Shown: positions 1 to 57,422 of the stretch, piece after piece
How the letters are laid out: every line of letters begins with the position of its first letter
How positions within the stretch are numbered: position 1 is the stretch's first letter
NCBI GenBank assembly: GCA_030386875.1
Contig: CM059558.1
Location: 9,867,501-9,931,500, forward strand
Source: Morinoia aosen
Taxonomy: Eukaryota > Arthropoda > Malacostraca > Amphipoda > Talitridae
Length of the DNA: 64,000 nt
Direction of reading: 5' to 3'
Position numbers and translations under genes: made by a program
The notes under the pieces: generated by a model
The model's input: only the letters and a program-made list of their open reading frames with translations
Told to the model about the DNA's origin: nothing
The model's database searches: none

Positions 1-1370
1 TGAAATATTGTTCCATTCTTCTGTGGCGATGCGTTTCAATTCATGAAGATTCTTTGAAGCTCTCTTGTTGATGTTGACTTTTAATTCCTGCCAAAAAATT
101 TCAATGGGATTGAGATCAGGACTAATCGAAGGCCATGACAGCACATTTATATTGTTTCATTGGAGCCAGGTAGTTGTTGACTTGGCCGTGTGCTATACGT
201 CATTGTCTTGTTGAAATACCCATCGCCTTCCGAGTCCCAAGCTATTTGCCGATACACTCAGGTTATCGTCCAAAATAGAAATATAGTCATCAGAGATAAT
301 CTTCCTTACAGTTGCAACCAATTTTCCAGTACCCGATGTAGCAAAACAACCCCAAAACATCAGTGAACCACGTCCGTGTTTAACTGTTGGCACAGTGTTC
401 TTGGGCAGGAAAGCTTCACCATTCTTACGCCAAACCTTCACGTCATTGTGCCCAAAGAGCTCGATTTTGATTTCGTCACTCCATAATACTTTCTCTCAAG
501 AGCATCTGTCGTTATCCAAGTGTGACTTTGCAAAGTTCAAGCGAGAAGCAACATGACATGGTTTGTGGAGTGGAGTCCTTCAAGGTCAGCGTCCGTGTAG
601 GCCTTCCTTGTTCAGACAGCACTGGATTGTGCGATGCAAGGAGGTTTAAGAATGGAGGCGGCATCAGCGCTCTAAAGTGAAGCCAATTTTTGGTAGCTGT
701 AGGGTATACGGGCACACACACGGAGATGGGGCTCAGTGCGTGTCAGACACTCAGCGTGGTAGGGCGCCGCTTATCCAAGCTGCGGTCAAGTACGAGTTTT
801 CCAATATGACGCGTTTCAAAGACGCAATTGAAATATATGCCTAAGAAAAAAACCCATAGCACAGAGTAGCGCAAGTCTGCCATTTAACAGCGCGGTATCA
901 GTCTCTGATGATGGAGGTGGTGCTACCCCTCCACTGCAACACCACCTCCACACTGGGACCCAATGCCGGGTGGGCGGGGCTTGGGTCGGCAAAAGTGGCT
1001 TCACGCGCTTGACTGGCAAAAGATAGCGATGCCGGTTCCATGTATCCAACTTCCTTGGTGCGATGTCTCACGCTAGTTCCCTGAGCGTTCAATCTCTCGG
1101 CAATGTCATCTAGCTTCACTCGTGAATTAGCGTTGATCTCACGACACAATTTTCGAGAAGTTTTCACCGAGAGCTTTTGTTTGCGATCACGCCGAAGCCA
1201 CGTTTCTACAGTACTAAACTTAGCAAACTTTTTCAAAACAGATTGTACTGTAGATCTTGGGATGCTTAAACGCTTAGAAATGTCCCAATAACTATCTCCA
1301 GCTTTGTTGCAGTCAATTATTTTCTGTCTGAGGTCCACACCGGTTTCCTTAGTTTTTCCAATCGTGGCGC
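1..1370 (-). pseudogene. Tc1-like transposase, decayed, runs off the left edge
   Basis: Read on the minus strand, the protein starts near 1358 with a Tc1-type N-terminus (GKTKETGVDLRQKI, the expected initiator Met read as Ile) followed by a paired-like helix-turn-helix (DISKRLSIPRSTVQSVLKKF). The DDE domain follows: the first Asp in VLWSDEIKIELFGHND near 440-500, the second in WVFQQDND near 195, and the third acidic pair in SPDLNPIEIFW near 85-125. This is the order of a DD34E Tc1 transposase, which cuts and pastes its own element at TA sites. Lesions seen: an in-frame TGA where SWEKVLW is expected, further stops after the QDND motif, and a roughly 450-bp insertion between the HTH and DDE domains. 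No intact terminal repeat is visible and the 3' end lies outside the window. Confidence 0.93.
550..998. other. GC-rich insertion inside the Tc1 transposase
   Basis: Removing this stretch restores a continuous Tc1 frame on the minus strand (AREA joined directly to SRLNFAKSHLD). The insert is visibly richer in G and C than its surroundings. It contains a short inverted pair (GGAGGTGGTG near 910 and CACCACCTCC near 945). No terminal inverted repeats or clear target duplication beyond GC were found, so its class is unknown. Confidence 0.55.
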
Positions 1371-1399
1371 TAGTGTACGAATGACAAAGCTCAACTCCT

Positions 1400-4300
1400 C
1401 TGGCTTCCCGTTAGCTCTCACAATTTTTTAGAATGATCTCACTTTTAGAATGTTCATGAAAATTTTAAACACAATTTTTTTCAATAAAACAAGTATAACG
1501 GTAAAAACTTCTCAATAAATGTAATGTTCTCAATTGTGTGAATGTTTTTGTTATTTCGTGATTCTGAAGTTCAGCTTGTTAATTCTTTCAAAGATAATAT
1601 TTTGTTCTAGAAACTTCGTATTATTGTCACTAATATGTGCTTCAAACACTGAAAATCTTATGCCTGTGGCAACAATAGTTTTTGGGTAATTCTGGAAAGG
1701 TATGAGAGACGTGGATGTACGAATAATTTCGTCGCTAACTGCCTTTATCATTTGTGTAGTGTCTATCTGTTGACTCAAACTGGCAGTTAGATTTCACTGG
1801 CAGCGAGTGGCACTCAGTATGACAGTATGTTCTATTTAGGCACACTCGTGGTAAAAAGGCAAATTTGATAACACCGGGATACACAGAAATTAACTCTCGT
1901 TCTTTGATAAACGATCATCAGTCTATCAGAAATCTTTTTCGAAAAATTCCGTAAATACAGTGTGGGACATCTAGGTGGAAAGTTTATTTATGTGTCTCGA
2001 AATTCCCTGGGTTTCGGAATGAACCTGCGTTGACTTCTGTTACTTCGTGGTTCTGTATGACGAACATGACCGAATGTAACAAATAAATATTTTCACGCCA
2101 CAGCGACTTATATTTCCGTTCCGACTTTGATGTATTCATTTTTTATCGTTGATGAAACTTTGATACGGATGTGTGAATTTTTATTTCCTAATAGATTTTA
2201 ATTAGACCCAAATATTTTGTACTTAGTAAGTCAGTAATGGAGTCCTTGCCGACTCACGTTGGTTACTACATTTCGGAATCTGTGTTTTATTCGCCTATGC
2301 ACTACACTGGAATTACTAGCTTTGGTTGATTAGATGACTTCGTATATTACTCCTATGCTTTATATTGCTCCTGCCTGCTGGTACGCGCAATCTTAAGGCT
2401 ACAAATGATTCCACCAACAATCCAAGAAGATTTAGTAGATGAATATCGAGGCTAACTTTCAGATGTCGAAATGGCTAAACAGGATACACTTCTAGGTATT
2501 TTTTCGACACATATTATCACAGAAAGCGGACCGAAAATTTATTCCGGCTGTTACCATCATCATTAACGTTCTTTATTACAGACACAGAAAGGAGGGGAGG
2601 TTGCGCCGAAAGAAAATTAACGTTTGGTCAAATTTACGTGACTCAGAAGTAAAATAAAGAACATATATACGCAGTAAAGCGAAATTGTTACGAGATATGA
2701 TTCCGTAATTAGTTTTCAACTATCATGAGCTAGAACTAAATTAGCTCATACACGAGCATGATAAGCGTGACTTTTAAATATTTTGAATATTAACGTTGAT
2801 GGAGTCCTCTGACTGAAACTTTTACTCCTGTACGTGGGCTAAACCATAGTTCTCCAGATTGCAATTTGAACAGAGATCAGTGTTACCGAAGACATTTCAG
2901 ATGATTCAAAATATACTTTATGAGCACTACAAGTAGTGAGCAACAGAAAAGTTAGTGTTAGGCTACGTGAAATGGCAAGAAAAATAATACGGTTAGTGTT
3001 CAATTAGTATATTGATTTTTTCCATTTCATATTCCTAACAGGCCGCAGATTTATTAATTGCAGATAGCATAAACGCAACCAGCACAATAACCTTCATTGA
3101 TTGTTATAGAGCAAGAACCACTATTTTTTCTGGATGAAACGTTTCTTATAAATGAAATACTCCCCAACTGTAAAATGAGCAGCACAAATCATATGATATG
3201 GTGAAAATGAATCAGTTGATAAAGAGAAAATTTTTAACAACATGTCTAGAGAGAATATCCACCTACTAAATTTACCTCAACCAATAGTATCAGATCCAGA
3301 AATGAGCGTTAAAATGAAATGGGAAATTAGAAGCACGGACACACACAGCTAGAAGAATATCGTGTGTCATAAAACACGAATAAACGTGTGTTTAAATTAA
3401 AATCCTCAATCATATGCGCATAATTTTTATTACTTTAACAAGCGTAGAATGCTAAAATAAAGAATATTACTATTGCTGAAAATGAAACACTCCAGTAAAA
3501 TAATCAATTTGGAACTGAAAACAAAGATAAGACGATGAAAAATGGGAGGAGCTTAGTGTACTTGATGAACCAATAGCAAAGCTGCTTTCAAAACGTCGTA
3601 AGGAGAGCTTCACTGGCGTTTAGTCTAGTAAAAAAGATCTCGAATGCACCTCGCTTTGAACCAATGAAGTCGACCAGAACCGAGAAGTCTACTAATGCAT
3701 CCTCTCAATGACTTTCTCAGCGAACCGAGGTACTCTACTAGAGTCCACTAGTCTAGTACATTTTTTCCGGAGGAAAAAATGCAAATAGCCCACTAACGCT
3801 TTCCACCCTTCAATTCATCTCACGCTAACAAAATAAGGCTGCACAAGTCGAAGACTAATAGGTTGTTCATTAGCTGTCATTGGGAGTTTAATCAACACCA
3901 CATACAGAGCTGGGAGCGAGTAGTGCGCAGGTATATTAGAACAGATTTAGGTTGTAGTTTTAGTTTGGCATACATCTGAGTAGTCGAGTGAGTAACATAA
4001 AGACTAAAATTAAGCTTTGTTATATTTAAATCGGAATGTATGAAGTGCTGCTGTATATACAACAACGTGAAAGTTATTTACAGGAGGAAACAGTAACTCC
4101 CTCATAATTGTTTTTAATGAAGTACCGGAACTATAGGCATAAATTTATTATGCACAGAAAAGTGCATTCAAACAGCTGCTCTTCAACATATCTGCCCAAT
4201 ATGTCCGTAACACCATTGCCAGCAGCGTACACCTATGTAATTATATTCCAGAAACCATATAAAATAAAATAAATATTTTATACAACAAAATTGATCATAT

Positions 4301-4760: not shown

Positions 4761-5296
4761 ATGTCTCCCAAAATCAAACTTCTTGATGAACCCGGAGGAG
4801 GTAGAAGCAGTGTCAAGGGACAAGTTACCCACGCCTACACTCAACCTATCTCAGAGTCAGAGAAATCTGAATTCAATAATGCTAGGAAACCTAACAAAAA
4901 TTACCTCGTGACAACCTCTACTCCTACGAGTAAATCACAGCCAGCTCCAAGACGAGAAGCCCCAAGGGCAAACCCTAACAATGGGAGCCCAAAGCAAAAG
5001 AAAAAAGGACCTTATAACAATACTTCTAAGGGATCATTAGAGAGTAGTCAAGAGTTTTTGAACTTCCAGTGTAAAAAGAAGAAGGAAACACAATGTCTCT
5101 GACTCAGAAATGTCTCAGCACAATGTGTCATTGCTCAGTGAGTCACATCCCTCAGGAGTTCTTTCTAGCAAAGATTCTCTTTCTGAATTAACTATGGTAA
5201 TTCTAAACAATCAAGAATAGCTAAAACAAAACCTTCAATACTCTGAAGGAATAAAATCTGCTAAAATATACCTCAACTTGTCAGAAAATGAAGATA
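4761..5296 (+). pseudogene. LINE A ORF1, N-terminal part
   Basis: An open frame from an ATG at 4761 (MSPKIKLLDEPGGG; an in-frame ATG also lies at 4731) encodes a Ser/Pro/Lys-rich, low-complexity N-terminus typical of the gag-like ORF1 of I/Jockey-type LINEs. The frame slips once near 5090 and then continues as HNVSDSEMSQHNVSLLS, with one in-frame TAG near 5216. It runs into the 13-bp target duplication of LINE B at 5284-5296 and resumes after 8708. The assignment rests on continuity with the zinc-knuckle part downstream; this portion alone would not be recognisable. Confidence 0.75.
5284..5296. repeat. Target-site duplication of LINE B, left copy
   Basis: GAAAATGAAGATA here is repeated exactly at 8696-8708, directly flanking LINE B. 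A 13-bp duplication is the size expected for target-primed reverse transcription. Confidence 0.93.
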
Positions 5297-8200
5297 CATA
5301 CATACATATACCGGGCTTATCCTCCCCATGGGAGGGTAGCCGACAGCAGGCCACAATCACCACACTTAGTCACTAGGAGGCGAGAGAGGCAGCACTGGCC
5401 GCACCTGAACTGGCAGGATCAGCAGCAGCCCAGCACAACCACCTTCCACAGTCAGGCCCGACAGCAACAGCTGGTTTACCCCGACCGCTTCATTGAGTGC
5501 ACCCCTCCCCCGCACGTGACAGGTCAACCCCATCACACGCGGGCAGCTTCCAGTAACGCGTCAAAAATAAAATTACCTCCTTATACACTGCCCCCACTCA
5601 CTTCTGTCCGCAGCCATCCCTCTCGCCACGTCCACAGTCAGACCCCTCTCATACAAAGCACGTCGCATCCCATCCATCCAACTCATCCGTGGTCTACCTC
5701 GCGCTCGAAGACCACTCACTTCCGACATATATATCTTTTTCACCAGCCGATCAACATTCATTCTTTCTACATGCCCAAACCATCCAAGCACTCTCATCCA
5801 CTCGCCTGCTCAACTTTTTGATAACACCCGTCTGCTCCCTAACCAACTCATTCCTGATCCTATCTCTTCTAGTTACTCCATACATGCTCCTCAAACACTT
5901 CATCTCAAACACATCCAACTTCCTCCTCTCAGCTGCTCTCAACCCCCAGGACTCTGCTCCATACAACAAAACTGGCACAATCAAACTTTCATACAGTCCC
6001 CTCTTAGCATTCATACTCAAACTCCTGCATTCAAAAACTTTCCTCATTGCACCCAATGTCTTACAACCTTCACTCACTCGATGCTTCACTTCTACTTCCA
6101 TACTATCCTTAACAGTCACATCCGACCCGAGGTACCTAAAATGCTCTACCTCCTCTAAAACTTCCCCATTCAACCTCACATCCAAAGTTCCAAACACTCC
6201 ACCTCTTGAACATCTCATATCACCTTACTTTTATTCACATTTACCCTCAATTTCCGCCTTTCGCACACTCTACCAAACTCTGTAACCAGTCTCCTCAGTT
6301 TTTCCTCTGAATCAGCCACAAGCGCTGTATCATCTGCAAACAACAGCTGACACACTTCCCAATACATACCATTTCGTCCCACCAACTGCGCACCTTTTCC
6401 CAACACTCTGGCATTCACTTCTCTCACCACACCATCCATAAACAAATTAAACAACCACGGCGACATCACACATCCCTGTCTCACACCTGTCACAACTGGG
6501 AACCATTCACTCACCTCATTCCCTACTCTCACACATGCTCTGCTATCAATGTAGAAACTCCTGATCGCATTCAACAGTCTCCCACCCACTCCATACAAAC
6601 TTACCACTTGCCATAAAGCCTCGCGATCCACTCTGTCATACGCCTTCTCTAGATCCATAAATGCCCAATATACATCCTTTCCCTTTAATAAGTATTTTTC
6701 ATTCACCTGCCTCACAGCAAACATTTGATCCACACAACCTCTACCACACCTAAAACCACACTGTTCTTCAGCAAGCACACGATCCGTCAACACTCTCACT
6801 CTTCCAATTAACACTCTTCCATACAGCTTCCCAATGACACTCAGTAGACTTATACCCCTAGAATTACTGCACTCATACCTGTCACCTTTCCCCTTGTACA
6901 ACGGAACTACGCACGCGCTACTCCAATCAACCGGCACTTTACTAGCCTCGAAACACACATTTAATAAACGAACCAACCATTCTATAACCAAATTTCCTCC
7001 TTTCTTTAGACATTCAACCGTGCAGCCATCCAAACCTGGAGCTTTCCCATTTTTCATTTCATCCAACGCACATCTCACCTCTGCACTTCTTATTCGATTT
7101 CTATTCACTTCACCAAACACAGGCATTCTAACATCACTTCCAACAGCTACTACTCTCGCAATCCTATCATCCCTCACGTTCAGCAGTTCCTCAAAATACT
7201 CCGCCCATCTCTTTCTCACATCACAACTCTCCACTAGCAGCCTACCATTTGTATCCTTCACTCGTGCCTCATTCTCCACCTGACCCTTCCTAATTCTCTT
7301 CACTTCCTTCCAGAAAACCTTCCTTCTCTCCATGAAATCCCCTCCCAACTTCCTCCCCCATTCCTCATCCGCCGCCCTCTTCGCTCTCCTTACCATTCTT
7401 TGTACCTCTTTCTTCCTCTCCTTATACTCTTCAAAATTTTGCTGGTTGCCTCGTTGCAACCACCTTTCGAACGCCCCCCGTTTTCTTTTCACAGCCGCTC
7501 CTACTTCTCCGTTCCACCATTCACTCCCCTTTCTAATCCCCCCTCCAACCTTCCTTACCCCACACACTTCCCTTGCATATTTTTCCACCGCATCTTTAAA
7601 CAACTTCCATTCCCCTTCCACTCCACCCACCTCACTTTCCTTCACCCTCCCATACTCCACTTTCATCTTCTCCTGATACTCACACTCACGCTCAGAATCA
7701 TGTAACTTGCTTACATTTAACACCTCCCTTCCACTCCTCCTTTTTACACCTCCCCATATTCCACTAACTCTCAGCTTTCCTTCCACCAAATAATGATCCG
7801 AAATCCCATTCATCTCACCACGGAACACATGCACATCGAGCAAACGACCCATCACTCCCCTGCTAACCAAAATATAATCCATCAATGCTCTCTCCTCTAT
7901 CACACCTCCATTCGTCCTCACATATGTATACTTGTTAATACTTTTTTTCTGAAACAAACTATTCCCAACCACTAACTCACTCTCCACACATAACCCCACC
8001 AAGAAATCCCCACTCTCATTCACCCCAGCTACTCCGTACTTACCAACAACACCATCCACCACCTCATCACCCACTCTTGCATTCAGGTCCCCCATCACCA
8101 CAACTCTACAACCACTCCCCACTCTAGCCACACACTCGGACAATTTCTCCCAAAACTCCTCTCTCTCTTCCCCACTCCTCTCCGATCCCGGTCCGTACGC

Positions 8201-8695
8201 GCTCACAAACACCCAAGACTCTTCCCCCCATTTCACTCGCACCCACATTATTCTTGATCACACCTCACCCCATTCAACTACTTTCTCTCTTATTCTTACA
8301 CTCAATAATATAGCCACACCCTCTCTTGCATGTCCCCCACGTACTCCAGACACTCTCCCTCCCACACTCCCAAACATCAACTCACCACTACCCTTCAATT
8401 TCGTCTCACTCAAGGCCAATACATCCATCTTCCGGTTTAACATCATTCTTCCGATCTCCTCCTTCTTACTCTCAGTTGCTCTACTTCCACACCCCCTTAC
8501 ATTCAAAGATCCTAGTACTAGGGTTTGAGTGGTCTTTCGACCTCTCTCACCCCCTTCATTGGCCTGCTGCCTCTCGGGATAATTATTACAGAGAAGGGGA
8601 TCCCCAGTCCCCTCGCTCCGTCCACTATAGTCGCCTCTTACGACACGCAGCGGACCACGGTGGGAGAATTCTAACCCCCCCCCCCCCCACAGGGG
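5297..8695 (-). mobile_element. LINE B, young APE-type non-LTR retrotransposon (RTE-like)
   Basis: A 3.4-kb minus-strand insertion lies in ORF1 of LINE A, bounded by a perfect 13-bp target duplication. Its 5' end (8695 side) begins with a G run (a C run on the plus strand, 8675-8688), and its 3' end (5297 side) finishes in a short TATG-type repeat tail rather than poly(A). It encodes endonuclease plus reverse transcriptase in one frame. The protein resembles the family that databases often label craniofacial development protein 2-like, which is why I place it near RTE; the clade call is from memory of the family and is not firm. It is almost undamaged, so it is among the youngest insertions in the window. 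Confidence 0.93.
5573..8545 (-). pseudogene. LINE B endonuclease-reverse transcriptase ORF
   Basis: Reading right to left: apurinic-type endonuclease (LGSLNVRGCGSR, LALSETKLKGSGE, VVVMGDLNARVGDE, ALMDYILVSRG, GISDHYLVEGKLRV), a linker, then reverse transcriptase (GKAPGLDGCTVECLK, FMDLEKAYDRVDRE, VRQGCVMSPWLFNLF, catalytic LLFADDTALVADSEEK) and a C-terminal region (KYLGS-like FRYLGSDV, LYGAESWGLR, GWFGHVERMN, RGRPRMSWMDG). It nicks DNA and copies its own RNA at the target. Only three lesions are visible: an in-frame TGA near 8257 (EWGEV stop SRIMWV), a one-base frame slip near 6215 (NKSKV then MRCSRG), and a second slip near 5800 just before the GHVERM motif. No clear ATG start is visible; the frame is open upstream to about 8560. 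Confidence 0.93.
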
Positions 8696-8708
8696 GAAAA
8701 TGAAGATA

Positions 8709-9892
8709 AAATCCCAAAAACAGTTAGGAATGTACTAATAAATGCACAAGATGATAACCAAAATTTGACAAAACTAAGTCCTTTCAAAGTTCAAGCTACA
8801 ATAAACCAAATATGTGGTGAAGTTGAGAAAGTGTAGTACAAAAGATCAGGCAATCTCATTATTAAAGTTAAAACAGAAAACCAAGTAAAAAACTTGATGA
8901 ACTATGGAACGGTTTATGTTCCAGAATTTCTGTCAGATTCATTAGAAGATTTACAGCAACAACTCGCCTCCTCTGGTGTTGTGGGTATACGTAAAATGTA
9001 CATGAACCCAAAGCGTGCCAATTCACCCTTGTTTGTACTTACTTTCCTTGGGACTTGCCCTACAGAGTTGAAAGCAGGCTATTCAAATTACCAAGTGAAC
9101 CCTTTCTACAACAACCTTATTTGATGTACCAAATGCTGGCGGTTGGGACATACTACCTCACTCTGCCGAAACCGAAAAGTCTGTAAGAAATGCTCATCTC
9201 GAGAACACGATGAAAACAGTTGCACTGCTGGAAATCTAGTATGTGCAAACTGCAAGGGAAACCATACAGCTGTCTCAAAAGAGTGACCCATTTATATTCA
9301 AGAACATAATGTCAGTAAACTCCAAGCAAGACAAAATGTCTCATTTGCAGATGCAAGGAAAATAATTCAAAACCAAGCCTAAGTCCACCAGCAGCAAGAC
9401 ACCCTTACAGAATTAGAATCAAGACGCTCCTTTCCCCCACGTGTACTATCAAGAACCCAAACAGAATCTCAAAATTTGACACAAAAAACATACGCTAATG
9501 CAATCAATTCAGAGAGCTTACATCATAGCCGTGGCATACGAACACAGAATCTTGGCAACCCTATGCATGCTCTCAAAAGGCTAGATCTGCAGAAGCAACC
9601 TACTCAAAACAAAGTAATGGAAAATAAAGCTATGGAACACAGTCAACGTATGAACAATAATACACCAATATTACTGAACACAGAAGTAAATTACATATTA
9701 ATGACTACTAATTACAACACAGCAAATACTCAGTTGAAAGAAAGGAACCCTCCTACCTCTAAAAACCAGCAAAGCAATAAAAGAATTTTAGAAAAGGAAA
9801 TTAAAATATCACTCAAGACCATCATATTTAAACTTCTCCCAACGATTGTCAAAATGCAAATCTCCAATTCAATCACTGAGCGTATTGAACTA
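8709..9892 (+). pseudogene. LINE A ORF1, nucleic-acid-binding part with zinc knuckles
   Basis: This continues the ORF1 frame directly after LINE B (NLSENED joined to KIPKTVRNVLINAQ). It carries an RRM-like stretch (SGNLIIKVKTENQVKNLM) and then zinc knuckles at 9124-9285: CTKCWRLGHTTSLC, CKKCSSREHDENSC (both C-X2-C-X4-H-X4-C) and a third CANCKGNHTAVSKE whose final Cys position is a TGA. A post-knuckle segment (QARQNVSFADARKI) is typical of I/Jockey ORF1 proteins. The protein would coat LINE RNA. In-frame stops lie near 8836, 9121, 9285 and 9380. The frame then runs to 9892, where the TA-flanked element begins, and resumes at 11511. Confidence 0.85.
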
Positions 9893-16784: not shown

Positions 16785-17455
16785 AAACAGAAAGATGCTT
16801 TATTCCAATCAATCAAGCAAGCCTGATACATATCATCTAGTACAATAGTTTGGTTAATGATAAGCAGATGCAACTAATCGAATTTCGAAATTTTGTTGCC
16901 TGTATCATTGTAATTACATCGAAATAAACAACTTTTTTTCCTGCACTTTTTAGGGTAAATGAGTATTTAACGAGTTATAGCAGTAAATCACTAACCGCAA
17001 CTCCAGTGTTTGAAGCGGGAAGAAATTGTTCCGAAAGAAAGACTACAATGGACTCTCCCTTCCGACGCGCTCGAATGATCCAGCGCATTCCAGGCATCAT
17101 AGACAGAAATTAACATACCGCTATAACTCGTTTAATACTCATTTGTCCCAAAAAGTGCATAGAAGAAAAGTGGTTTATTTCTATGTAAGTACCATGATTC
17201 AAGCAACAAAAATTCGTCATTCGATTAGTAGCTGTTTATTCAAGCGCTTTCCAGCCATCAATGATGAAAATTACCATACCGCTATAACTCGTTAAATACT
17301 CATTTACCCCAAAAAGTGTATGAACGAAAAGTTGTTTATTTTGATGTAAGCACCATGATACAGGAAACAAAATTTTGAAAATCGATTAGTTGCATCTCCT
17401 TAACATTGACCAATAGTTTTTTAAATGCCTTATAGCTAAAATCAAGACGCCATGA
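16785..17455. repeat. SINE-tail-like segment, split by foldback element A
   Basis: GATGCTTTATTCC, AAGCCTGATACATATCA, AAATGCCTTATA and GACGCCAT occur here in the same order as in the SINE at 46168-46455. Element A (16852-17411) interrupts the segment at AATAGTTT, which is duplicated on both sides. This shows the segment was already present before A inserted. Confidence 0.7.
16852..17411. mobile_element. Foldback element A (GGTWAATG family)
   Basis: A 560-bp inverted-repeat element: GGTTAATGATAAGCAGATGC at the left and, read inward from the right, GGTCAATGTTAAGGAGATGC. Flanked by a perfect 8-bp duplication AATAGTTT (16844-16851 and 17412-17419). The arms share an inner block with B and C (AATAAAC, the CACTTT motif, GAGTTATAGC and a block around CAACTCCAGTGTTTGAAGC). 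No coding capacity. 8-bp duplications fit hAT, P or Merlin elements; the termini match none that I recognise. Confidence 0.88.
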
Positions 17456-17724: not shown

Positions 17725-17731
17725 TTTTTTA

Positions 17732-18278
17732 GGTAAATCTGAAGGATATGACAGTAATCGATTTTCCACTTCTCAGTGCCTAAACCTAATTAATTGAATC
17801 AAAATAAACAAGTTTTTTCTATGCACTTTCCGTCTGAAATGATTATTTTACGAGTTATAGCGGTAGGTTTAGTTTCGTCTTTGATGACAAATGCGCTCGA
17901 ATAAACCGCTACTCATTGATTTTCGAATTTTTGTTGCTGGAATCATGGTTATAACACCGAAATAAACTATTTTTCTTCCATACACTTTTTTCGTCAAATG
18001 TGTGTATAACGTGGTATAGCGGTAGGTTTGGTTTCGTCTTTGATGACGAGAGAGCCGGAAGCGAAACTCTATTGCAGTGTTGCCATTCCACGGGATCGAT
18101 GAATTTCTTTCCGCTTCAAACACTGGAGTTGCGGTAAGTAATTTACCGCTATGACCAATAAAATAGTGATTTCAGACGGAAAGTGCATAGAAGAAAACTT
18201 GTTTATTTCGATTAAATTAACTATGTTTAGGCATTGAAATTTACGAAATCGATTACTGTCATATCCTTCAGATTTACC
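17732..18278. mobile_element. Foldback element B
   Basis: A 547-bp member of the same family: GGTAAATCTGAAGGATATGA at the left matches the inward-read right end exactly over the first 20 bases and beyond. Flanked by TTTTTTA on both sides (7 bp; 8 with one mismatch). The interior holds a second inverted region with GATGACAAATGCGCTCG and GATGACGAGAGAGCCG segments and the shared CTTCAAACACTGGAGTTGC block. Confidence 0.85.
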
Positions 18279-18435
18279 TTTTTTATAGTAAACGTGGTAA
18301 AATTTGATATTACATCCTACTTCCAGATTAATTTACACACAGAAACTTAGATAAAAATTAAAGCTGATAGCACCCTACCACAAGATTTAGGATACCTTTT
18401 AGGAATGAAAAGCTCCAAGTTATTCAAAAAAATTC

Positions 18436-18970
18436 GGTAAATGTTGAGGACTTGACCATAATTGATTTTCGAATTTTCGATGCCGAAATATGGTTAATGA
18501 GATCAAAAGAAACAAGTTTTCTTCAATGCACTTTCCGGTGGAAACGAGTATTTTAAAAGTTATGGCGTTAAATGAGTTACCGGAACTCCAGTGTGCATCA
18601 CCCTATTACAAACGTAAAGAGGTTGGGTCGTGAGGGGTAGCCACAGTTCTTTTAGTTTTATAGTTTTCACTAAAAGAACTGTTGCTACCCCTCACGACCC
18701 AACCTCTTTACGTTTGTAATAGGGGGTTTGCTCTTCGTCGGCTTGGTTGGCGCGCGGGAACGTCTGTTTACTTTCACGTCGGACCGCGCGGTGTATTTTT
18801 CCCCGCCTCAAACACTGGATTTACGTTAACTCATTTAATGCCATAACTTTTAAAATACTTATTTCCACCGGAAAGTGCATTGAAGAAAACTTGTTTATTT
18901 TCGTCTCTTCAACAATCTTTATTGATCAAAGAGTGGAAAATCGATTATGGTCAAGTCCTCAACATTTACC
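18436..18970. mobile_element. Foldback element C, with a nested hairpin
   Basis: A 535-bp member of the family: GGTAAATGTTGAGGACTTGA at the left is repeated inverted at the right end. Flanked by a perfect 8-bp duplication AAAAATTC (18428-18435 and 18971-18978). The centre carries the hairpin at 18601-18724 and a GC-rich stretch (about 18730-18800) not seen in A or B. Confidence 0.9.
18601..18724. repeat. Near-perfect 55-bp-arm hairpin
   Basis: Arms 18601-18655 and 18670-18724 are reverse complements with a single mismatch and a 14-nt AT-rich loop. The arm begins CCCTATTACAAACGTAAAG and contains GGTTGGGTCGTGAGGGG. The near-identity of the arms implies recent origin or continued correction. 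Probably a hairpin MITE nested in C, but no target duplication was seen. Confidence 0.9.
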
Positions 18971-19313
18971 AAAAATTCAAAAAGAAGCAGTATGTCATTA
19001 ATCAGCATTTAATTGTAGCACAACATATTCCTATTTTTTTATTTCCTTTATATTTTAAATTTCAGGCAAGTCAACAGCATTTTCCATGGAACTAGGGTAA
19101 CAAATTTGAACTGTTCTAACTGTATCAACTGTATTTGAAATGTTCTAACTAGTTTCAAAGCTTTGATAGAGAGATGCAACTTCATCAAGTGAAAAAATCG
19201 TATTTTATCATAAAAATGAAGGTCATAAATCATGAAAGTAAAAGTATGATCAAATAAAGAACCTATTCATACCTAGTAAATTAGTTAGCTAACTGTTGAA
19301 TTACAGTGTTTAA

Positions 19314-20801
19314 GGGGACCATGTCGGTAAGTCGGCCAAAATTTTATTTTCCATCCGTAGATTTTTGTCTATCGGACTTACGTCTATGAAAATTTGCAGA
19401 CTACTAGATCTTTAGATTCCCAACAACTTTTCACGTATAAATTTTTTTGCATTAGGGCATAGAAAATGAGTTATTCATGAAAAATAATAAAATATATGTA
19501 TAGAACATTTGTTATTTAGGGGCCGAAATTTACAAAGTTAGAGCAATGCGGTTTGTTGCATGTAAAACTACAATGTATGCTCCAAAAATGCTGTTGACCG
19601 GTTTTTGAATTTGAATTCATTTTGAATTTATAGAATTTTTTCGAAAAAGCCATAATTAGTTTAAAATTTAGGGTAAAAAGTCGACGGATAAATTTTCACG
19701 TAAAATTTTTTGAAAATCAACTCAACAACAATTGTAAATTACCCATGTGACTTCCAAATGCAGCAAACCACATTGCTCCAGCTTTGTAAATTTCGGCCCC
19801 AAAATTACAAATGTCTTGACAACTTCTTGACAACCTACTTGTTTCATAAAACCTATTTTAAAGTAAAAAAATGCTTCTCCTCCTACAATTTTTGAGCTAC
19901 AGTAATGATTTTGGTATCATTGGATGCAAAAAAACAAGGGCTTTACAATGTATTAGGAAGTTTTTCAAAATTCTTTCTTACTTCAAAGTTATCACGTCAT
20001 AAATTTGATTTTTCTTGGGAATATTTTGATTTTTTCCTTTTCTTATTTTTTACTTTTATATTGGAAATTTGAGGAAAAGCATTCAAGTTTTTGGAATTTC
20101 CACGTTATTTTGCATCCAATGATACCAAAATCATTACTGTAGCTCAAAAACTATCAGAGAAAAAGCATGTTGAACCCCCCACCACAAAAAATGTCGTTTT
20201 CTAGGATTTCTCATTTTCTTTTTAAGAAATTCGCATTTTGTCATGAATGATAAATGATTCTAAATTGCATTTCCTATCAGTACACCAAATTTCATTGCTC
20301 CAAATTCAATAATAAAAAAATATTTGAAAGGGGGATGCTTACCTTGAGGAATATGAATGACGAAATATATAAAAAGAATAAAAAAATTTAAATTTGAGAA
20401 TTTTTTTTTGAATGTCCACATTATTCTGCACCCAATGATACCAAAATCATTACTGTAGCTCAAAAATTGTAGGAGGAGAAGCATTTAGAAAACCACCCCA
20501 AAAATGTCGTTTTCTATTATTTCCCGTTTTCTTTTCAAGAAAATCGCATTTTGTCATAAATGATAAATGATTCTAAATTGCATTTTCTATCAGTGTACCA
20601 AATTTCATTGCTCTAAGTTCAAAAATGAAAAAAAGGTCCGTAAGGGGGATGCTCTCCCCCTCCCGGGAGGGGACGTTAGCTCTGGGGTACGTTCCTGATA
20701 TTTTTACAGACATTCGGGGACATATCTCAAACTCATTTAAAGTAATAAAAAAAATCGGGAGAATCGACCATTGGACTGCAGATGCCCCCAGCATGGTCCT
20801 C
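19314..20801. mobile_element. TTAA-flanked non-autonomous DNA transposon in the left arm
   Basis: GGGGACCATG at the left end and CATGGTCCTC at the right end form 10-bp inverted termini with one mismatch, each flanked by TTAA. Comparing with the uninterrupted right arm of the host element confirms that exactly this stretch is extra. Inside are an inverted pair (about 19505-19560 against 19755-19812, containing GGGGCCGAAATTTACAAAG) and a tandem direct duplication (about 20110-20340 and 20420-20650). TTAA targets fit piggyBac or Kolobok groups; no transposase is present. Confidence 0.85.
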
Positions 20802-21330
20802 TTAATAAGGCCCGCTAACTGAATTTACTTCTTCGACTTCCCGATGAGGCACGTACGGTCAGTAAGTGAAAGCTATGTAACATGAATAGTGGAAAACAGA
20901 AGCGACATACAATTATCACACTTAAACAACAAAACAGGCGAACCAAAATCAAACCAATTATGTAAATAAAGTTAAGGTGTATTTTAAAGTTTTCGAAATT
21001 TATTGCAGAAAAAGCTGAAAATTCGATTTTTATTTATCTTGTAAATCGTCAAATACTACAAAGCGAATAATTTTATTTTAATTTAGCATATGAATCCCCG
21101 TACAGTAGGAATCTAGCATTTTTCTTCAATTTACGATGTTTGAAAAAAAATTCACATACAATCTTATAGTTAGTTGCGCGTGTTTGGATCTTTTTGGTTT
21201 CGGGGCCTATTGAATATTAATGTTTTTTTTCGCCGAAGTATGTATTTTGGTGTGGAAAACACAAACATGCTAACTATTATGTGGATAAATTATTGTTTTG
21301 GTTCACTTTTTTAACTACACCTTTTTCATT

Positions 21331-22632
21331 TCAAATTAATCTAAGTCAAGTTCAAATTAATCCGAGTAAAGTTCAAATTAATCCGAGTAAAGTTCAAATT
21401 AATCCGAGTCAAGTTCAAATTAATCCGAGTCAAGTTCAAATTAATCCGAGTCAAGTTCAAATTAATCCAAGTCAAGTTCAAATTAATCCAAGTCAAGTTC
21501 AAATTAATCCAAGTCAAGTTCAAATTAATCCAAGTCAAGTTCAATTTAATCCAATTCAAGTTCAAATTGATCCAAGTCAAGTTCAAATTGATCCAAGTCA
21601 AGTTCAAATTAATCCGAGTCAAGTTCAAATTAATCCAAGTCAAGTTCAAATTAATCCAAGTCAAGTTCAATTTAATCCAAGTCAAGTTCAATTTAATCCA
21701 AGTCAAGTTCAATTTAATCCAAGTCAAGTTCAATTTAATCCAAGTCAAGTTCAATTTAATCCAAGTCAAGTTCAAATTAATCCAAGTCAAGTTCAATTTA
21801 ATCCAAGTCAAGCTCAATTTAATCCAATTCAAGTTCAATTTAATCCAAGTCAAGTTCAATTTAATCCAATTCAAGTTCAAATTGATCCAAGTCAAGTTCA
21901 AATTAATCTGAGTCAAGTTCAATTTAATCCAAGTCAAGCTTAATTTAATCCAAGTCAAGTTCAATTTAATCCAAGTCAAGATCAATTTAATCCAATTCAA
22001 GTTCAAATTGGTCCAAGTCAAGTTCAAATTAAACCATGTCAAGTTCAAATTAATCCGAGTCAAGTTCAATTTAATCCAAGTCAAGTTCAATTTAATCCAA
22101 GTCAAGTTCAATTTAATCCAAGTCAAGTTCAATTTAATCCAAGTCAAGTTCAATTTAATCCAAGTCAAGTTCAATTTAATCCAATTCAAGTTCAAATTGA
22201 TCCAAGTCAAGTTCAAATTGATCCAAGTCAAGTTCAAATTGATCCAAGTCAAGATCAATTTAATCCAATTCAAGTTCAAATTGATCCAAGTTAAGTTCAA
22301 TTTAATCCAAGTCAAGATCAATTTAATCCAATTCAAGTTCAAATTGGTCCAAGTCAAGTTCAAATTAAACCATGTCAAGTTCAAATTAATCCGAGTCAAG
22401 TTCAATTTAATCCAAGTCAAGTTCAATTTAATCCAAGTCAAGTTCAATTTAATCCAAGTCAAGTTCAATTTAATCCAAGTCAAGTTCAATTTAATCCAAG
22501 TCAAGTTCAATTTAATCCAAGTCAAGTTCAATTTAATCCAATTCAAGTTCAAATTGATCCAAGTCAAGTTCAAATTGATCCAAGTCAAGTTCAAATTAAT
22601 CCATGTCAAGTTCAAATTAATCCAAGTCAAGT
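21331..22632. repeat. 21-bp minisatellite, 62 units, with 336-bp higher-order repeat
   Basis: Unit AAGTTCAAATTAATCCRAGTC and close variants (AATTTAATCC, AAATTGATCC, ATCCAATTC). The array is 1302 bp, exactly 62 x 21. A marked group of variants (ATCAATTTAATCCAATTC, then AAATTGGTCC and AAATTAAACCATG) at 21981 recurs at 22317, a shift of 336 bp or 16 units, so the array grew by block duplication. As 21 is a multiple of three and the unit lacks stops in several frames, long artificial open frames run on both strands (up to 429 codons on the minus strand, repeating TWINLNL; 220 on the plus, repeating INPSQVQ). Confidence 0.95.
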
Positions 22633-23515
22633 CACCGATACTTTTACAATTTTATTAAAATAAAATCATTATAAGCCCAACATGAGGAATGCAATAAAAT
22701 TATTAACTAATGTATCTAATAATATAACTATATTAACAACAAAGTTTTCGATTAGGAATAATAGGACTGCTCTAGCTTTGTTAACTATATTGTTGCAATA
22801 AAATAACAAAACGAAATCCTTGCAATAGATGTTTCTAACCGTATTGCAAAGTAATGTAGACCAGTTGTAATAGCAAATGTTTTCAAAAGTAGACCGAAAC
22901 AATAATTTATCCGTAATATGGTTATCATTTTCATGTTTTTCACACCAAAATACATACTTTGACGAAAAGAAAACATTAAAATTCGTTAGGATCCGAAACC
23001 GGAGAGATGCGCTAACATGCAACCAACTATAAGATTGTTCGTGATTTTATTCAAACATCTTAAAATAGAAGAAAAATGCAAGATTTGTGATGAACGGCGA
23101 TTTGCATGCTAAATTGAAATAAAATAATTAGCTTTGTAACATTTTACGACCTACAAGCTCAATTAAAATAGAATTTTAAGTTATTTTTATGTTTAATTTA
23201 TAAAAACTTTAAAATGCGCTTTCAACTATATATGATAGGTTTAATTTTGTTAGCTAAAAATGTTTCAGTTGTAAAAGTATTATAACTTTATGTCTCCACT
23301 GTGTTCAACTATTTATGCCACAAAGTTTTGACTTAATCCGTGACATCGGGAATTCAATGTCGTAAATTCACTTAGCGGGCCTGATTAAACGATGTAATTC
23401 AACATTTTGCTAATTTACTTGGTATGAATAGGCTCTTTAGTTGATTATACTTTTCTTTTAACGAATTATGACCTCATTTTCACGATAAAGTACGTATTAT
23501 TGGAAAGTATCGATG

Positions 23516-24640
23516 AAATATCGGCCAGATTTTGCCGCTACCGGTATATCTGTACATCACTAGCCTACGATCACGCAACGTTCGCTAGTAGGTAGCTCCT
23601 CAATTCAAAATATAATTCAACTCTAACTCATCAATAATGCTAATGTTCATCAGGTGATTAAGGAGTTTTATTCTGTTAGTATTTACTTTAATGCGTTCAC
23701 GGAAATCACGACCTCCGTTTTAAAGAATCACTAAAAGAGCTCATATAAGAACGCTTTACACGAATGACATTTTGCTCGCTGATACGTAATTTTCAAGCTA
23801 TAACATGAATTACGTTCAGGTTAAAGTAGCATTATATATTCGGCTGCATCGTACCTGCATTTTTGAAATACGCCTGGTATTTTGGCGGTAACCATCAGTG
23901 TCAGTATGGCTAAGTTAAGTTCTTTTAGGTTAGTTTATTCAGCTAATCTAACGTTACCTAACCTAATTTACCCAGCATCACGTCATGCTGTATTACGTCA
24001 TATATACGTGTCCGTTTTTCCGCTTTTTATATACAAAGTTCCTATAACTTCACAGGTTAATATCTTAAAAATTATGCATCTACAGTGAGCAAAATATCAT
24101 TCATTTAAAACGTTCTTAAATGTGTTCCTTTTCTGCGGCTCGAGAATTCTTAATTTCCGCGAACGAATTTAAGTAAATATTGATGTTTTCTTCTTTAAAC
24201 ATCGTTATTCCTTCATTTTATAACGCAGCTCGTCAGATATTTATTGAAGTTTAATTTTCTTTCTAATAAATTGAAAACTAGTGATGTACAGACAATAGAA
24301 TAAGGCCGATACCGAAACCATCAGTAGGTTTCGGTATACCGATACCGAAACCTACATCTAAATTGAAAATATTGCATATTGTTTCTTGTCAAAGGTTTCT
24401 CAAGTGGAATTATACTGCAACTTAGAAGTTTGAAGCTAAATTGTGTTAACACTTACTGTAAAATAAGAATGGAATTAATAGTGAATAAACATATCATTAC
24501 TATTCATTACAATTCATTCACACTAAAAAATTATTCAGACGACAAGGTTGAAGGCACTTGTTGTCTCAACCGTCACCTTCATCAGGCGCTTGACAACATG
24601 CCATACCGGCATAACGTCTTCAATGGAATAAGAAACTAAC
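23516..24640. other. Unassigned stretch with two facing element termini
   Basis: CTGTACATCACTAG at about 23560-23575 and CTAGTGATGTACAG at about 24281-24294 are reverse complements, each next to a segment built from CCGATACCG/CGGTAT words. They look like the ends of two related elements facing each other. No coding sequence was seen. GTCACCTTCATCAGGCGC near 24570, read on the minus strand, resembles a decayed PLE hammerhead region. Confidence 0.45.
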
Positions 24641-24679
24641 TTGAGAGCGTACACCTCATACCTTTTCAGAGCAAAAATT

Positions 24680-24845
24680 TTTTCAAAAATAAGATACACT
24701 CTAACGTACTACACACTTGCACTGAAATACAGTCTGACATTGCTTGAAACTTATTAAATGAGTCAGAAACCAGCACCACATCTGAGACGCACAACTGTCA
24801 CAACACAATTTAAATAACTGGCGCCGCCCGGCCCTTGACATCTTG
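24680..24845. repeat. Dispersed repeat, second copy of 11130-11290
   Basis: Same order of shared words as the copy inside the TA-flanked element. It ends shortly before GCAGTGTTGCCATC, which looks like a hAT terminus. Confidence 0.6.
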
Positions 24846-24859
24846 CCTACGTGGGCGAG

Positions 24860-26390
24860 CAGTGTTGCCATCTCTAACTCGAGTGCAGATAAAAATTATT
24901 GGCTTAGATGAATAACAGGATAGTATTATTTAATGAAAACTGTAATAAATGATTAAATTGGCATTTAAATACCTTAATACATTATAAATATCCGCAAGTT
25001 AAAGTTTTAGGTAAATTTAACAATTTTTTAGCTGACAGCTTTGACTAGCAAGTATTCCTCGGCAGCTACCAACTGTAATTTTCATGGCAAATGAATTTTG
25101 CTGTCTGAGAGTGCTCAAGAATGTTGGCATGTACGATTTTTCATAAGAATGTTTTTTATCTTTCATTTGAGAGTAATTTGAACTCGATAGGTGAATCATT
25201 TCAAAAGTTACGAGTGGTAGACTGAGATCTTAAGTTGCACTCAAGAAATTCTAAAGAAATTTCTGTAGTTTCCAGAAGACCGTTTCCTTACAGTCTCCGC
25301 TGCAGCCTGACAGCATTTTACGTACTATGAAAAGTTAAACTTTTAAGGCTATTAGTGTCTTAAAAATTTATAATTATCGGCTTATGCAATGTATTCATCG
25401 TATTTTGATTTTTATCGTAGGTATCTCTCACTATTTCGAGACGGTATCTAAATAATAAACCGATGAACAGTTATTCTCTTATTAAACTATTGCATTTCCT
25501 TTAATATTGTTATCATTGTCGCAATTTACTTCTGTTTGTAGGCTATTACGTGTAGTTTTTAATCCACGTATTCTTTAAGATTTTTGTCTATGATGGATCT
25601 GTCCAAATTGAGCGAGCATTGAATTAATTTTCGATTTATCTGCAAGCCTTTTTTAAAATGAGCCAAGAGCTTGAAACGTTCATATGAATTCGTTTTTAAA
25701 ATGGATCTTCTCTATCGCCTGCTTTACGGACTGTTTTTTCTTGTATGAGATTTGCACATATAATTGTTCTGACAATTATACATACTTTATTAGGCTTGGT
25801 TGGAATAAAGCATCCCCTCAGGGGGATACAGCTATTGTATATGTGGGAATTAGCGCTCCCAGGGGAAAAATGTGAGGGCCCGAGCTGAGAGTTAAGTAGG
25901 GCTTCTTTTTGTTGAAATAAAATGATTTTGTTGGGTTAAGGACCACCTTTTTTCGATTCACTACTGCACGGTTTTTCAGCAGCTCGGACTTTTTTTCTCA
26001 ACTTTTATCTTATTTTATGAACTTCTTTCTCATCTTACTCTCATATTCTGCTCAGATTCCTCAGTCTCTTATCACCATACTGAATGGTGCCTTCCTCCTT
26101 CCTCTCTTCGATACGCTCTATTTTTTTTAGCGGTTAGGGAGGCTTTAACAAACTCATAATCTAATCTGGAATAAAGCATCGTATTCATAGAGGCCTGAAT
26201 GTTTTAATTTTTATCTCAGTGTGAAAGGTTTTATAATTAGTAGAGCAAAAATGTAAAATTTCAGAATAACTTTTTATATATATTTCATTATTATTTTGTT
26301 CATTTCATTTCAAAATTAAGGGGTTATTTAACATAGATTAATTTTAGTTGCTTGAGGGCATGAGAAACAAGTGTCATAAAAACACGGTAT
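24860..26390. other. AT-rich stretch without recognisable genes
   Basis: Only short open frames. No paired termini or arrays were recognised. Confidence 0.45.
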
Positions 26391-26397
26391 CATCGAT

Positions 26398-26622
26398 TCT
26401 GAGCCAGATGGCCGTCCATGGCCAAGTCAACCTCGAATCGCTACTAGATGCCGCGAATTAAAGACGGTGTATGGACGGGAGGCCACGGATGGCAGTGCCG
26501 ATCATAACATGCTCGTCAATTGGGCGGTGTACCGTTGTTTTATCGGTCGGATGGCCGAATGACCAATAAATCGCGGATAATAAGCCCTGTCAACCATATT
26601 CCACCGGTGCACCGTCCTCGAT
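26398..26622. promoter_or_regulatory. GC-rich island in AT-rich DNA, candidate regulatory block
   Basis: About 225 bp with clearly higher GC and no repeats, between AT-rich flanks. It holds dense short words (GATGGCCGTCCATGGCC, GGACGGGAGGCC, CGGTCGGATGGCCG, CCAATAAATCGCGG, GGTGCACCGTCC) and no open frame of note. It directly precedes a TG-rich simple repeat. This is suggestion only; conservation was not tested. Confidence 0.3.
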
Positions 26623-26624
26623 TT

Positions 26625-26740
26625 TCAATAGGGGTGTATGTGTGCGTGTTGGGCGTATGTATATGCGTAGGTATGTATGTGCATGAATATGTGTAAATTT
26701 TTACATATACGTGTGCACATATGTGTGTAACACGCTGACA
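26625..26740. repeat. Degenerate TG/TATG simple repeat
   Basis: Alternating GTGTATGTGTGCGTG and GTATGTATGTGCATG words with an inverted segment near 26695-26725 (TTTTTACATATACGTGTG). Confidence 0.8.
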
Positions 26741-54937: not shown

Positions 54938-55874
54938 CGAGGCCTGTCGAAAAAGTATCCGACCTTTGGCCAGAAAAAATACTTCAACAACCTGACGGGG
55001 TTGGGACCCTAATCCCCTTCAAAGTAGGCTCCTTGTGCTTCCACACACTTAGCCCACCGATCCTTCCACTGCCGGAAACACCTCTGGAAGTCTTCTTTTG
55101 GAATGGTGTTCAGCTCTGTCGTCGCGTTCCGCATTATCTCTTCTCTACTCTCAAAACGGGATCCTTTCAGTGGTGTCTTCAATTTTGGAAACAACCAGAA
55201 GTCGCAAGGAGCCAGGTCTGGAGAGTAGGGAGGTTGGCGAACGGTCGTAATTCCATGTTTGGCCAAGAAATTGCGGATCAAATGGGATGAATGTGCGGGC
55301 GCGTTGTCGTGATGCAAGTGCCAGTTGTTCGCAGTCCACATGTCTGGTCAAAATGGCATGTGCAGAATCTTTACTCACTCCAACCTCTTGGGCAATCTCC
55401 CGCACGGTCAAACGACGATCTGCCATCACCAAATTTCGCACCCTCTCAACAACAGCTGCACTCCGAGAAGTTTTGGGCCTGCCACAACGCTGCTCACTCT
55501 CCGCTGATGTGCGGCCATCTTTGAATCGGTTGAACCACTCCTTAATTTGTGTTACACCCATAGCATCTTCCCCAAACACCTGCTGAATCTTACGAATTGT
55601 TTCAATTTGAGAATCACCAAGCTTTTGACAAAATTTGATGCAGTGTCTTTGCTCAATTCGTTCAGTCATCTTGCAAGAAAACTAAATCCGACAAACACTT
55701 AGAACAGCACCTTACTTGGCGACCCCCAGCTAGTGAGTGGCCCAAGTGAATGCGGTGAAAAAAGTCAAGCATGCGCATTAAGATTCCTCCTTCCACCGTG
55801 CACAGTGGCGCCGCCTTAGAATCACTACTTTGCGCGGGAAAAATTAAGGTCGGATACTTTTTCGACAGGCCTCG
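54938..55874 (-). mobile_element. Internally deleted mariner element
   Basis: Perfect-looking 29-bp inverted termini CGAGGCCTGTCGAAAAAGTA and on to CCGACCTT, flanked by TA at 54936-54937 and 55875-55876. At 937 bp it is about 350 bp shorter than a full mariner, and the missing part is inside the transposase. Confidence 0.95.
55009..55669 (-). pseudogene. mariner transposase, internally deleted
   Basis: N-terminal part (55669 downward): MTERIEQRHCIKFCQKLGDS, IKEWFNRFKDGRTSAESEQR, CGRPKTS and REIAQEVGVSKDSAHAILTR, the two helix-turn-helix units with the linking GRP motif. It then jumps directly to NNWHLHHDNAPAHSSHLI (second catalytic Asp) and PPYSPDLAPCDFWLFPKLK (third Asp, DD34D), with a frame change at the junction near 55340. 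The segment with the first catalytic Asp is deleted, so the protein is dead. The flanking inverted repeats look intact. Confidence 0.95.
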
Positions 55875-56204: not shown

Positions 56205-57422
56205 GTAACAGGGTTGAAAAGGGTATAATAAATCTGCTCCAGCTTCCGTAATTAATTATGCTTATTAAAGGATTTTACACCAATTTAAAATTAAGTGCTC
56301 CAAATCTGCTGCCAGGTTGAAAGTCCGAGATAGGTCGGTGCAGAAGAGCGAGCGAACACCACGCAGGCACCAGATTCACCGCTACTTGCACAGACCCGAA
56401 CAACCTGTGTGACAACAAATTATACGCATGTAGTTGAAATTTGTAGGCGACTGGAATTTTTGGGATAAACTCACAGGTCAAGTTTTATAAAAGTCTTCGA
56501 GACTTTCAAGTTTTCAAGAGTTTTCAAGTATTCAAGAGTTTTTACGTATTCAAGAGTTTTCAAGTATTCAAAGAGTTTCGAGTATTCAAAGAGTTTTCAG
56601 GTATTCAAAGAGTTTTCAAGTATTCAAAGAGTTTTTAAGTTTTCAAAGAGTTTTTAATTATTCAAAAAGTTTTTAAAGTCAAGTTTTTATTTCATTTGCG
56701 GATAAAATATTATGAGAAGCAAAACACCCAAATATCACACTAGCCACCGAAAAAACCTTATTTCACTAAAAAAGGACGAACCTCCGAGGGCCTCGGGTGT
56801 CTTCCGTCCATGCGACGCCAGTAGCCTGTTGCCGTCTCCTCGCTGCTTTTGGTTTACGATCTCATCGTGCTGTAGTTTTCTTTACGTTAAAACTCCCCAA
56901 GAATTTCGGGGTCCAGGTTGAAGAATTGAAAAACGTAGAAGGTTTCAGCTTCGTTGAGCCGCCTGCCGCTGAGAAGGAAGAGTAGTATCTCGAAGCGAGT
57001 CGGAGTGCTGCTGAAGAGTACAGGAGCCAACTGACAACGTCCGGACCAAAAGGCAGCTTTGACGCTTGGCCGGACTGACGCTCAGTTTAATGTACAACAG
57101 TTGCGTTGATACCGTTGAACAGCAGCTCAATCGGTTCTGGTACGGGACTGGGTGGAAAATGAAAACTTCCAACGCCATCAGCTTTGGTGGCTTATAAAAG
57201 TTCGAAAGTAATTCGGTCTTAAGGGGGATGCAAAATTTGAATATGCTTTGTCTCGTCATTGATTGAATGTTTTATTTTTAAAAGCATTAATATTTACTGA
57301 TGAATTATTTATTTCCTATATTATGTACCATGTACATTTTAGATTTTATTTCAATTAAAATCAACTTAATCTAAGCTGCAGATATTCTGCATATTTAATC
57401 TTATTAAGAAAAATATCTATAT
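56205..57422. mobile_element. 1.2-kb unclassified insertion in LINE C copy 3, with a minisatellite
   Basis: The LINE sequence is interrupted between the endonuclease end and the linker. TGCT is present on both sides (56201-56204 and 57423-57426). It holds two TATAAAAG boxes (near 56485 and 57195), a 19-20 bp tandem repeat (56505-56680) and a GC-rich block (56770-57180). Size, 4-bp flanks and the TATA boxes would suit a fossil LTR, but no coding sequence supports this. Confidence 0.5.
56505..56680. repeat. 19-20 bp minisatellite, about nine units
   Basis: Unit AGAGTTTTCAAGTATTCAA with length and base variants. Confidence 0.85.

What the first reader, a model, noticed from the sequence alone, without database searches (positions are those of the whole stretch)
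19175..23515. Long inverted-repeat element whose core is a 62-unit minisatellite
Two arms of about 620 bp in opposite orientation flank exactly 62 copies of a 21-bp unit. The combination of long inverted arms and an internal tandem array recalls Foldback elements, but the sequence is unfamiliar and no transposase is present. The array shows block growth (336 bp = 16 units). It could be a mobile cassette that spreads minisatellites or a fragile palindrome. This is my best candidate for an undescribed element.
Basis: partly seen in the sequence, partly recalled or inferred. Interest (0 to 1): 0.72.

Follow-up and report, generated by a model that had tools for sequence, protein, structure and literature searches.

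The report
Truncated DNA transposon carrying a minisatellite
The inverted arms and the 21-base repeat array are the middle of a larger, recently spread "jumping gene" in which no enzyme gene was found and whose array length differs from copy to copy; it looks like an unusual member of a known kind of mobile DNA.

Summary
Two inverted arms (75% identical, E=5e-118) flank 62 copies of a 21-bp unit. The left arm is interrupted by a 1,488-bp insert flanked by TTAA; copy L049 keeps the uninterrupted site.

The arms are not the ends of the mobile unit. Twenty fetched copies plus a complete 6,019-bp copy (L049) show 39-bp terminal inverted repeats (CCCTATTG...CAATAGGG) and a 2-bp target duplication in 14 of the 14 copies with both ends in hand. 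Such ends occur 1,024 times, control 0. The window copy lacks its left ~1.2 kb and runs 19199-26633. No transposase was found.

The array holds 6 to 96 units among 22 copies: 40-96 in the 11 copies with the TTAA insert, 6-17 in the 11 without. The same array start occurs 2,308 times, far more than the ~512 elements that 1,024 ends can make; 15 of 17 close neighbours among the first 100 face each other.

Verdict: a new family of a known kind, non-autonomous DNA transposons that carry tandem repeats. Where the minisatellite came from is the open, more interesting question.

The parts
19199..26633 (+). left-truncated copy of a 6-8.5 kb non-autonomous DNA transposon with 39-bp terminal inverted repeats
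   Evidence: 20 of 20 fetched copies continue left of 19199; copies B and C end at 26633 with unrelated flanks
19199..19313 (+). left inverted arm, outer part (the arm goes on further left in other copies)
19314..20801 (+). nested 1,488-bp insert flanked by TTAA on both sides; a repeat family of its own
   Evidence: uninterrupted site in L049; 11 scored copies at 98-100%, 29 at 83-92%
20802..21310 (+). left inverted arm, inner part
21314..21329 (+). array-start motif ACTACACCTTTTTCA(C/T) shared with arrays outside this element
21330..22632 (+). 21-bp minisatellite, 62 units
22885..23512 (-). right inverted arm
26595..26633 (-). right 39-bp terminal inverted repeat
   Evidence: G000:C3:9894095-9894133
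26634..26635 (.). gt, the 2-bp target duplication on the right; the left partner is lost here but present in the near-identical copy L009

Best explanation
The feature is the central part of one copy of a non-autonomous cut-and-paste DNA transposon family. Complete copies have 39-bp terminal inverted repeats, are flanked by a 2-bp target duplication, and carry inside two ~640-bp diverged inverted arms around a 21-bp minisatellite. Shown: common ends, target duplications, copy number, array-length variation, a nested TTAA insertion that marks one sublineage, truncation of the window copy. Inferred: movement by a transposase supplied by another element that recognises the 39-bp ends; arms and array as passengers; array growth and loss by unequal exchange, slippage or gap repair, with each copy carrying its array along and then changing its length on its own.
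For: Of 40 full-length right-arm matches at 95-100%, 20 of the 39 outside the window were fetched; 20 of 20 reach the 39-bp left end (L027 differs at 2 of 39). 14 of 14 copies with both ends in hand have identical 2-bp flanks of varied sequence, about 8e-17 by chance at the window's base composition. 39-bp ends: 508 + 516 with up to 3 mismatches, reversed control 0 + 0. No open frame above 132 aa in L049; 5 of its frames scanned, one sub-threshold Pfam match at E=0.71. Arrays of 6-96 units in 22 copies. Window and L009 are 99.5% alike over 14.2 kb yet hold 62 and 52 units.
Against: No transposase or autonomous partner was found, and the superfamily is not settled. In 7 of the 20 fetched copies the right end was not in the fetched stretch, so their duplications were not seen. 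No empty target site was compared. Array lengths rest on one assembly. Only right-arm signatures at 215 places against about 512 possible elements: many copies with these ends differ inside and were not read.
Confidence: 0.9

Rival explanations
1. The array, with its fixed start motif, is (or comes from) a separate mobile family whose ends are two facing arrays; this transposon captured one such end, and the arms grew or were captured independently.
For: The array start occurs 2,308 times and in front of it three unrelated sequences are seen: this element, L056 forward, and the L053-L055 family. Of 17 neighbouring starts within 3 kb among the first 100 listed, 15 face each other, 0 face apart, 2 point the same way (p=7e-8); spacings 1,178 and 1,853 each occur twice.
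Against: No such pair was read whole. The one possible pair in hand, L056, has a diverged second start and its two outer flanks are not alike, so no shared outer ends were seen beyond the motif. After the array, this element and the other contexts share nothing. Bases CA in front of the motif are found in 159 sites against 1,578, which tells little about a fixed end.
Confidence: 0.35
2. It is a true Foldback-type element with long terminal repeats.
For: Long inverted arms, a tandem array, no coding capacity found.
Against: Arms are internal by 1.1 kb and 3.1 kb in L049, the array is outside the arms, the target duplication is 2 bp.
Confidence: 0.04
3. A local rearrangement or assembly artefact.
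For: The window copy is cut at 19199 and is a near-identical duplicate of a copy 2.26 Mb away on the same contig in opposite orientation.
Against: The same anatomy recurs on many contigs with different flanks and target duplications.
Confidence: 0.03

Closest known systems
Tetris (Foldback-like, Drosophila virilis; PMC4079207)
   Same: Non-autonomous, inverted repeats with a variable tandem array, array number differing between near-identical copies
   Different: In Tetris the repeats lie in the terminal arms, unit ~220 bp, target duplication 8-10 bp; here arms are internal, unit 21 bp, duplication 2 bp
Cg_HINE non-autonomous Helentrons (oyster; PMC7492417)
   Same: Mobile elements that spread central tandem repeats; repeat and flank modules combine in several ways (abstract)
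   Different: Helentrons have no 39-bp inverted ends with a target duplication (recalled); this family has both
Galileo (P-element superfamily, Foldback-like; PMC3688188, listing only)
   Same: Long inverted repeats with internal tandem repeats
   Different: In Galileo the repeats hold transposase sites; here the 21-bp unit does not resemble the 39-bp end beyond shuffles
CACTA/EnSpm or ISL2EU transposons (recalled)
   Same: Short 2-3 bp target duplications not fixed to TA
   Different: Ends begin CCCTATTG, not CACTA; no transposase to test

Membership tests
TIR (cut-and-paste) DNA transposons, superfamily open | terminal inverted repeats at fixed ends | tested here: met
   39-bp inverted ends; 20 of 20 left ends, 13 of 20 right ends in hand
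TIR (cut-and-paste) DNA transposons, superfamily open | target-site duplication of constant length | tested here: met
   2 bp in 14 of 14 copies with both ends
TIR (cut-and-paste) DNA transposons, superfamily open | transposase in the element or in a partner with the same ends | tested here: inconclusive
   no frame above 132 aa in L049; no partner found; most elements not read
Foldback | long inverted repeats are the ends of the element | tested here: not met
   arms 1.1 kb and 3.1 kb inside the ends
Foldback | tandem repeats lie within the inverted repeats | tested here: not met
   array lies between the arms
Foldback of the Mutator type (as Tetris) | 8-10 bp target duplication | tested here: not met
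   2 bp
Helitron/Helentron (HINE) | no inverted ends with target duplication (recalled) | tested here: not met
   both present
CACTA/EnSpm | CACTA-like ends | tested here: not met
   ends begin CCCTA
CACTA/EnSpm | Transposase_21 protein | tested here: inconclusive
   PF02992: 0 matches in the genome, but the 14 controls rang nowhere
Tc1/mariner | TA target duplication | tested here: not met
   gt, ct, tg, at, aa, tt, ta all occur

The most novel reading that the evidence does not exclude
The 21-bp minisatellite with its fixed start motif is itself a travelling module: it forms the two inward-facing ends of an abundant short element, was taken up by at least one unrelated older repeat family and by this 6-kb transposon, and then grew from about 10 to 40-96 units in one sublineage that has spread recently. 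The genome would then hold a minisatellite that moves between transposons and is amplified inside them.
Probability: 0.33. Interest if true: 0.55.

Novelty: new member of a known kind. Interest (0 to 1): 0.36.

Why it matters
It shows one minisatellite scattered through a genome as cargo of a transposon and then changing length at each site. The duplicate pair (62 and 52 units, flanks 99.5% alike) and the 11-copy sublineage with long arrays form a natural series for measuring how fast such arrays grow or shrink. If the array also has a mobile life of its own, it links minisatellite birth directly to exchange between transposons.

Tried and rejected
Arms as ends of the element: rejected. Array as a protein-coding repeat: frames over the array are open, as expected for a 21-bp unit without a stop; one search found variant bases unevenly spread over the three phases (114, 75, 205), but these are not independent counts and the commonest change alters the residue; not pursued. 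Array units as extra transposase sites derived from the 39-bp end: no better than shuffles (1,319 of 2,000 as good). Arm pair as a nested hAT-like insertion: the outer arm edge recalls a hAT end (recalled); by eye I saw no target duplication in the printed sequence; left open. Autonomous partner: three ends with another base after the 39-bp end were read for 1.5 kb each; one follows the family for about 590 bp, the other two for 280 bp and then differ, not followed up; one search used a letter code that did not exclude the common form and is uninformative for that aim; PF02992 uninformative. Rfam at gathering scores: 0 matches in the window; tRNA: 0. Paper search returned none; nothing is claimed about print beyond searches. 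One search split the arrays wrongly for the window, L016, L019 and L028; one search replaces it. Six-frame translations were printed but not searched.

Limits: of the 39 non-window matches I fetched 20, the 17 best and three further down, so the sample leans to young copies. One search uses the first 100 of 2,308 places (contigs C1 and part of C2), and its list of ends holds exact ends only, so '4 of 100 within 9 kb of an end' is a lower bound; a fifth start, at C2:26036048, lies beside a right-arm signature without a listed end.

Full report
What is there. The window holds 62 copies of a 21-bp unit at 21330-22632 between two inverted arms. The arms pair as 19199-19313 with 23385-23512 and 20802-21310 with 22885-23388, 75.4% identical over 634 aligned positions, E=5e-118. 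Between the two parts of the left arm sits a 1,488-bp insert, 19314-20801, flanked by TTAA on both sides; the complete copy L049 keeps the uninterrupted site, and the right arm has the matching TTAA. The insert is a repeat of its own: of 40 scored copies, 11 are 98-100% identical and are the window and L009-L018; the other 29 are 83-92% (3,388 candidates, so more exist). I did not check those 29 against every element of the family. Most of them match from base 18, so the insert's first bases differ among subfamilies.

The true element. The right arm has 40 full-length matches in the genome at 95-100%, the window included (only 40 of 2,958 candidates were scored). I fetched 20 of the other 39. 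In 20 of 20 the sequence continues left of the point that matches 19199, where the window copy stops, and reaches a common end CCCTATTGAAAATCGAGGACGGTGCACCGGTGGAATATG (L027 has 2 differences). On the right, homology to the window ends at 26633 in L011 and L014, whose flanks are unrelated, at the same 39 bp inverted. In 13 of the 20 both ends were in the fetched pieces, and 13 of 13 are flanked by an identical 2-bp duplication (gt, ct, tg, at, at, aa, tt, ta, tt, tt, tt, ta, ta); in the other 7 the right end was not in the piece. L049 shows at/at. At the window's base composition, 14 of 14 has a chance of about 8e-17. The 39-bp end occurs 508 + 516 times with up to 3 mismatches, against 0 for the reversed control. 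L049 is 6,019 bp: end, 1.1 kb, arm (1139-1779), array of 11 units, 250 bp, arm (2275-2915), 3.1 kb, end. Its longest frame between stops is 132 aa; 5 of its frames were scanned and gave one sub-threshold match at E=0.71. The right-arm signature is found at 215 places (up to 3 mismatches), fewer than half of the roughly 512 elements that 1,024 ends could make, so many elements with these ends are different or deleted inside; I did not read them.

The window copy. It lacks the left ~1.2 kb. Copy L009, 2.26 Mb away on the same contig and in the opposite orientation, is complete, shares the right flank beyond 26633 to at least 35719 (the end of what was fetched), and matches 99.5% over 14.2 kb. 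The gt after 26633 equals the duplication of L009. So both derive from one insertion followed by a large duplication (inference). What cut the window copy at 19199 is not known.

The array. Among 22 copies (window, 20 fetched, L049) the unit number runs from 6 to 96. The 11 with the nested insert have 40-96 units; the 11 without it have 6-17. In one search there is a gap between 98% and 92% identity, so these 11 are probably all the insert-bearing copies of the assembly. In the arm-and-spacer stretch these 11 are on average 99.1% alike, the other 11 95.3%, between groups 95.4%. Window and L009 hold 62 and 52 units, so arrays changed after the duplication if the assembly is right. The mechanism is inferred.

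The array elsewhere. A second repeat family (83-95% to the query; 40 of 1,240 candidates scored) carries the same unit with nearly the same start CTACCTTTTTCAC. The exact short start CTTTTTCA(C/T)TTCAAATTAATC is found 2,308 times. Even if each of about 512 elements held one, about three quarters would lie elsewhere (inference). Of the first 100 places, 4 lie within 9 kb of a listed end; this is a lower bound, since only exact ends were listed, and a fifth lies beside a right-arm signature. Of 17 neighbours within 3 kb, 15 face each other, 0 face apart and 2 point the same way (p=7e-8). The longer start CTACACCTTTTTCA(C/T)... is found 1,578 times, the second family's own start 48 times. CA in front of the C form is found 159 times. 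This suggests a separate element with inward-facing arrays, from which the transposon took its array.

Known relatives. Tandem repeats carried by non-autonomous DNA elements are known: Tetris in Drosophila virilis (PMC4079207; abstract and three sections read), Cg_HINE in oyster (PMC7492417; abstract read), and others tabled in a review (PMC9659126; passages read). The Tetris paper also reports near-identical copies that differ in array number, and cites the idea that internal repeats hold transposase sites in Galileo; here the unit does not resemble the 39-bp end beyond shuffles. The present family differs from Foldback elements in three tested features: internal arms, array outside the arms, 2-bp duplication. 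A 2-bp duplication not fixed to TA recalls CACTA/EnSpm or ISL2EU (recalled), but the ends start CCCTA and the one transposase search was uninformative, as its controls rang nowhere.

Verdict. Real feature, wrong boundaries, ordinary in kind and unusual in build.

Noticed in passing
window 18601-18724: Near-perfect hairpin with 56-nt arms (98%), ends CCCTATTAC...GTAATAGGG; folds at -68.3 kcal/mol as DNA, z -18.7. Looks like a short inverted-repeat element; its first bases resemble the 39-bp end.
   Followed up: partly
window 17727-18975: A cluster of several overlapping inverted repeats of 44-162 nt and a 161-bp tandem duplication at 17082-17390.
   Followed up: no
window 5001-9000: Strong GC skew (-0.37 to -0.72) over an antisense frame with a reverse transcriptase domain, 6215-8257 minus.
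   Followed up: no
window 56504-56673: A second minisatellite: 19-bp unit, 9.2 copies.
   Followed up: no
window 898-1410 and 55151-55681: Transposase fragments: Sleeping Beauty-type HTH (minus strand) and Mos1-type HTH (minus strand).
   Followed up: no
L051, L052 (G000:C10:34530700-34532200 and C10:39041590-39043090): Two copies with the family's right end that match only the first 280 bp and then differ, with the same 99-aa frame in both; a possible different member with these ends.
   Followed up: no
G000:C2:31596383-31603216: A 5,977-bp element followed within about 200 bp by a second array start and right-arm signature in the opposite orientation to its neighbour.
   Followed up: no
L055 364-1585 and L056 2051-2724: L055 has a 614-bp tandem duplication that includes the array (98%); L056 holds two large palindromes, 800-1296 and 2051-2724.
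   Followed up: no
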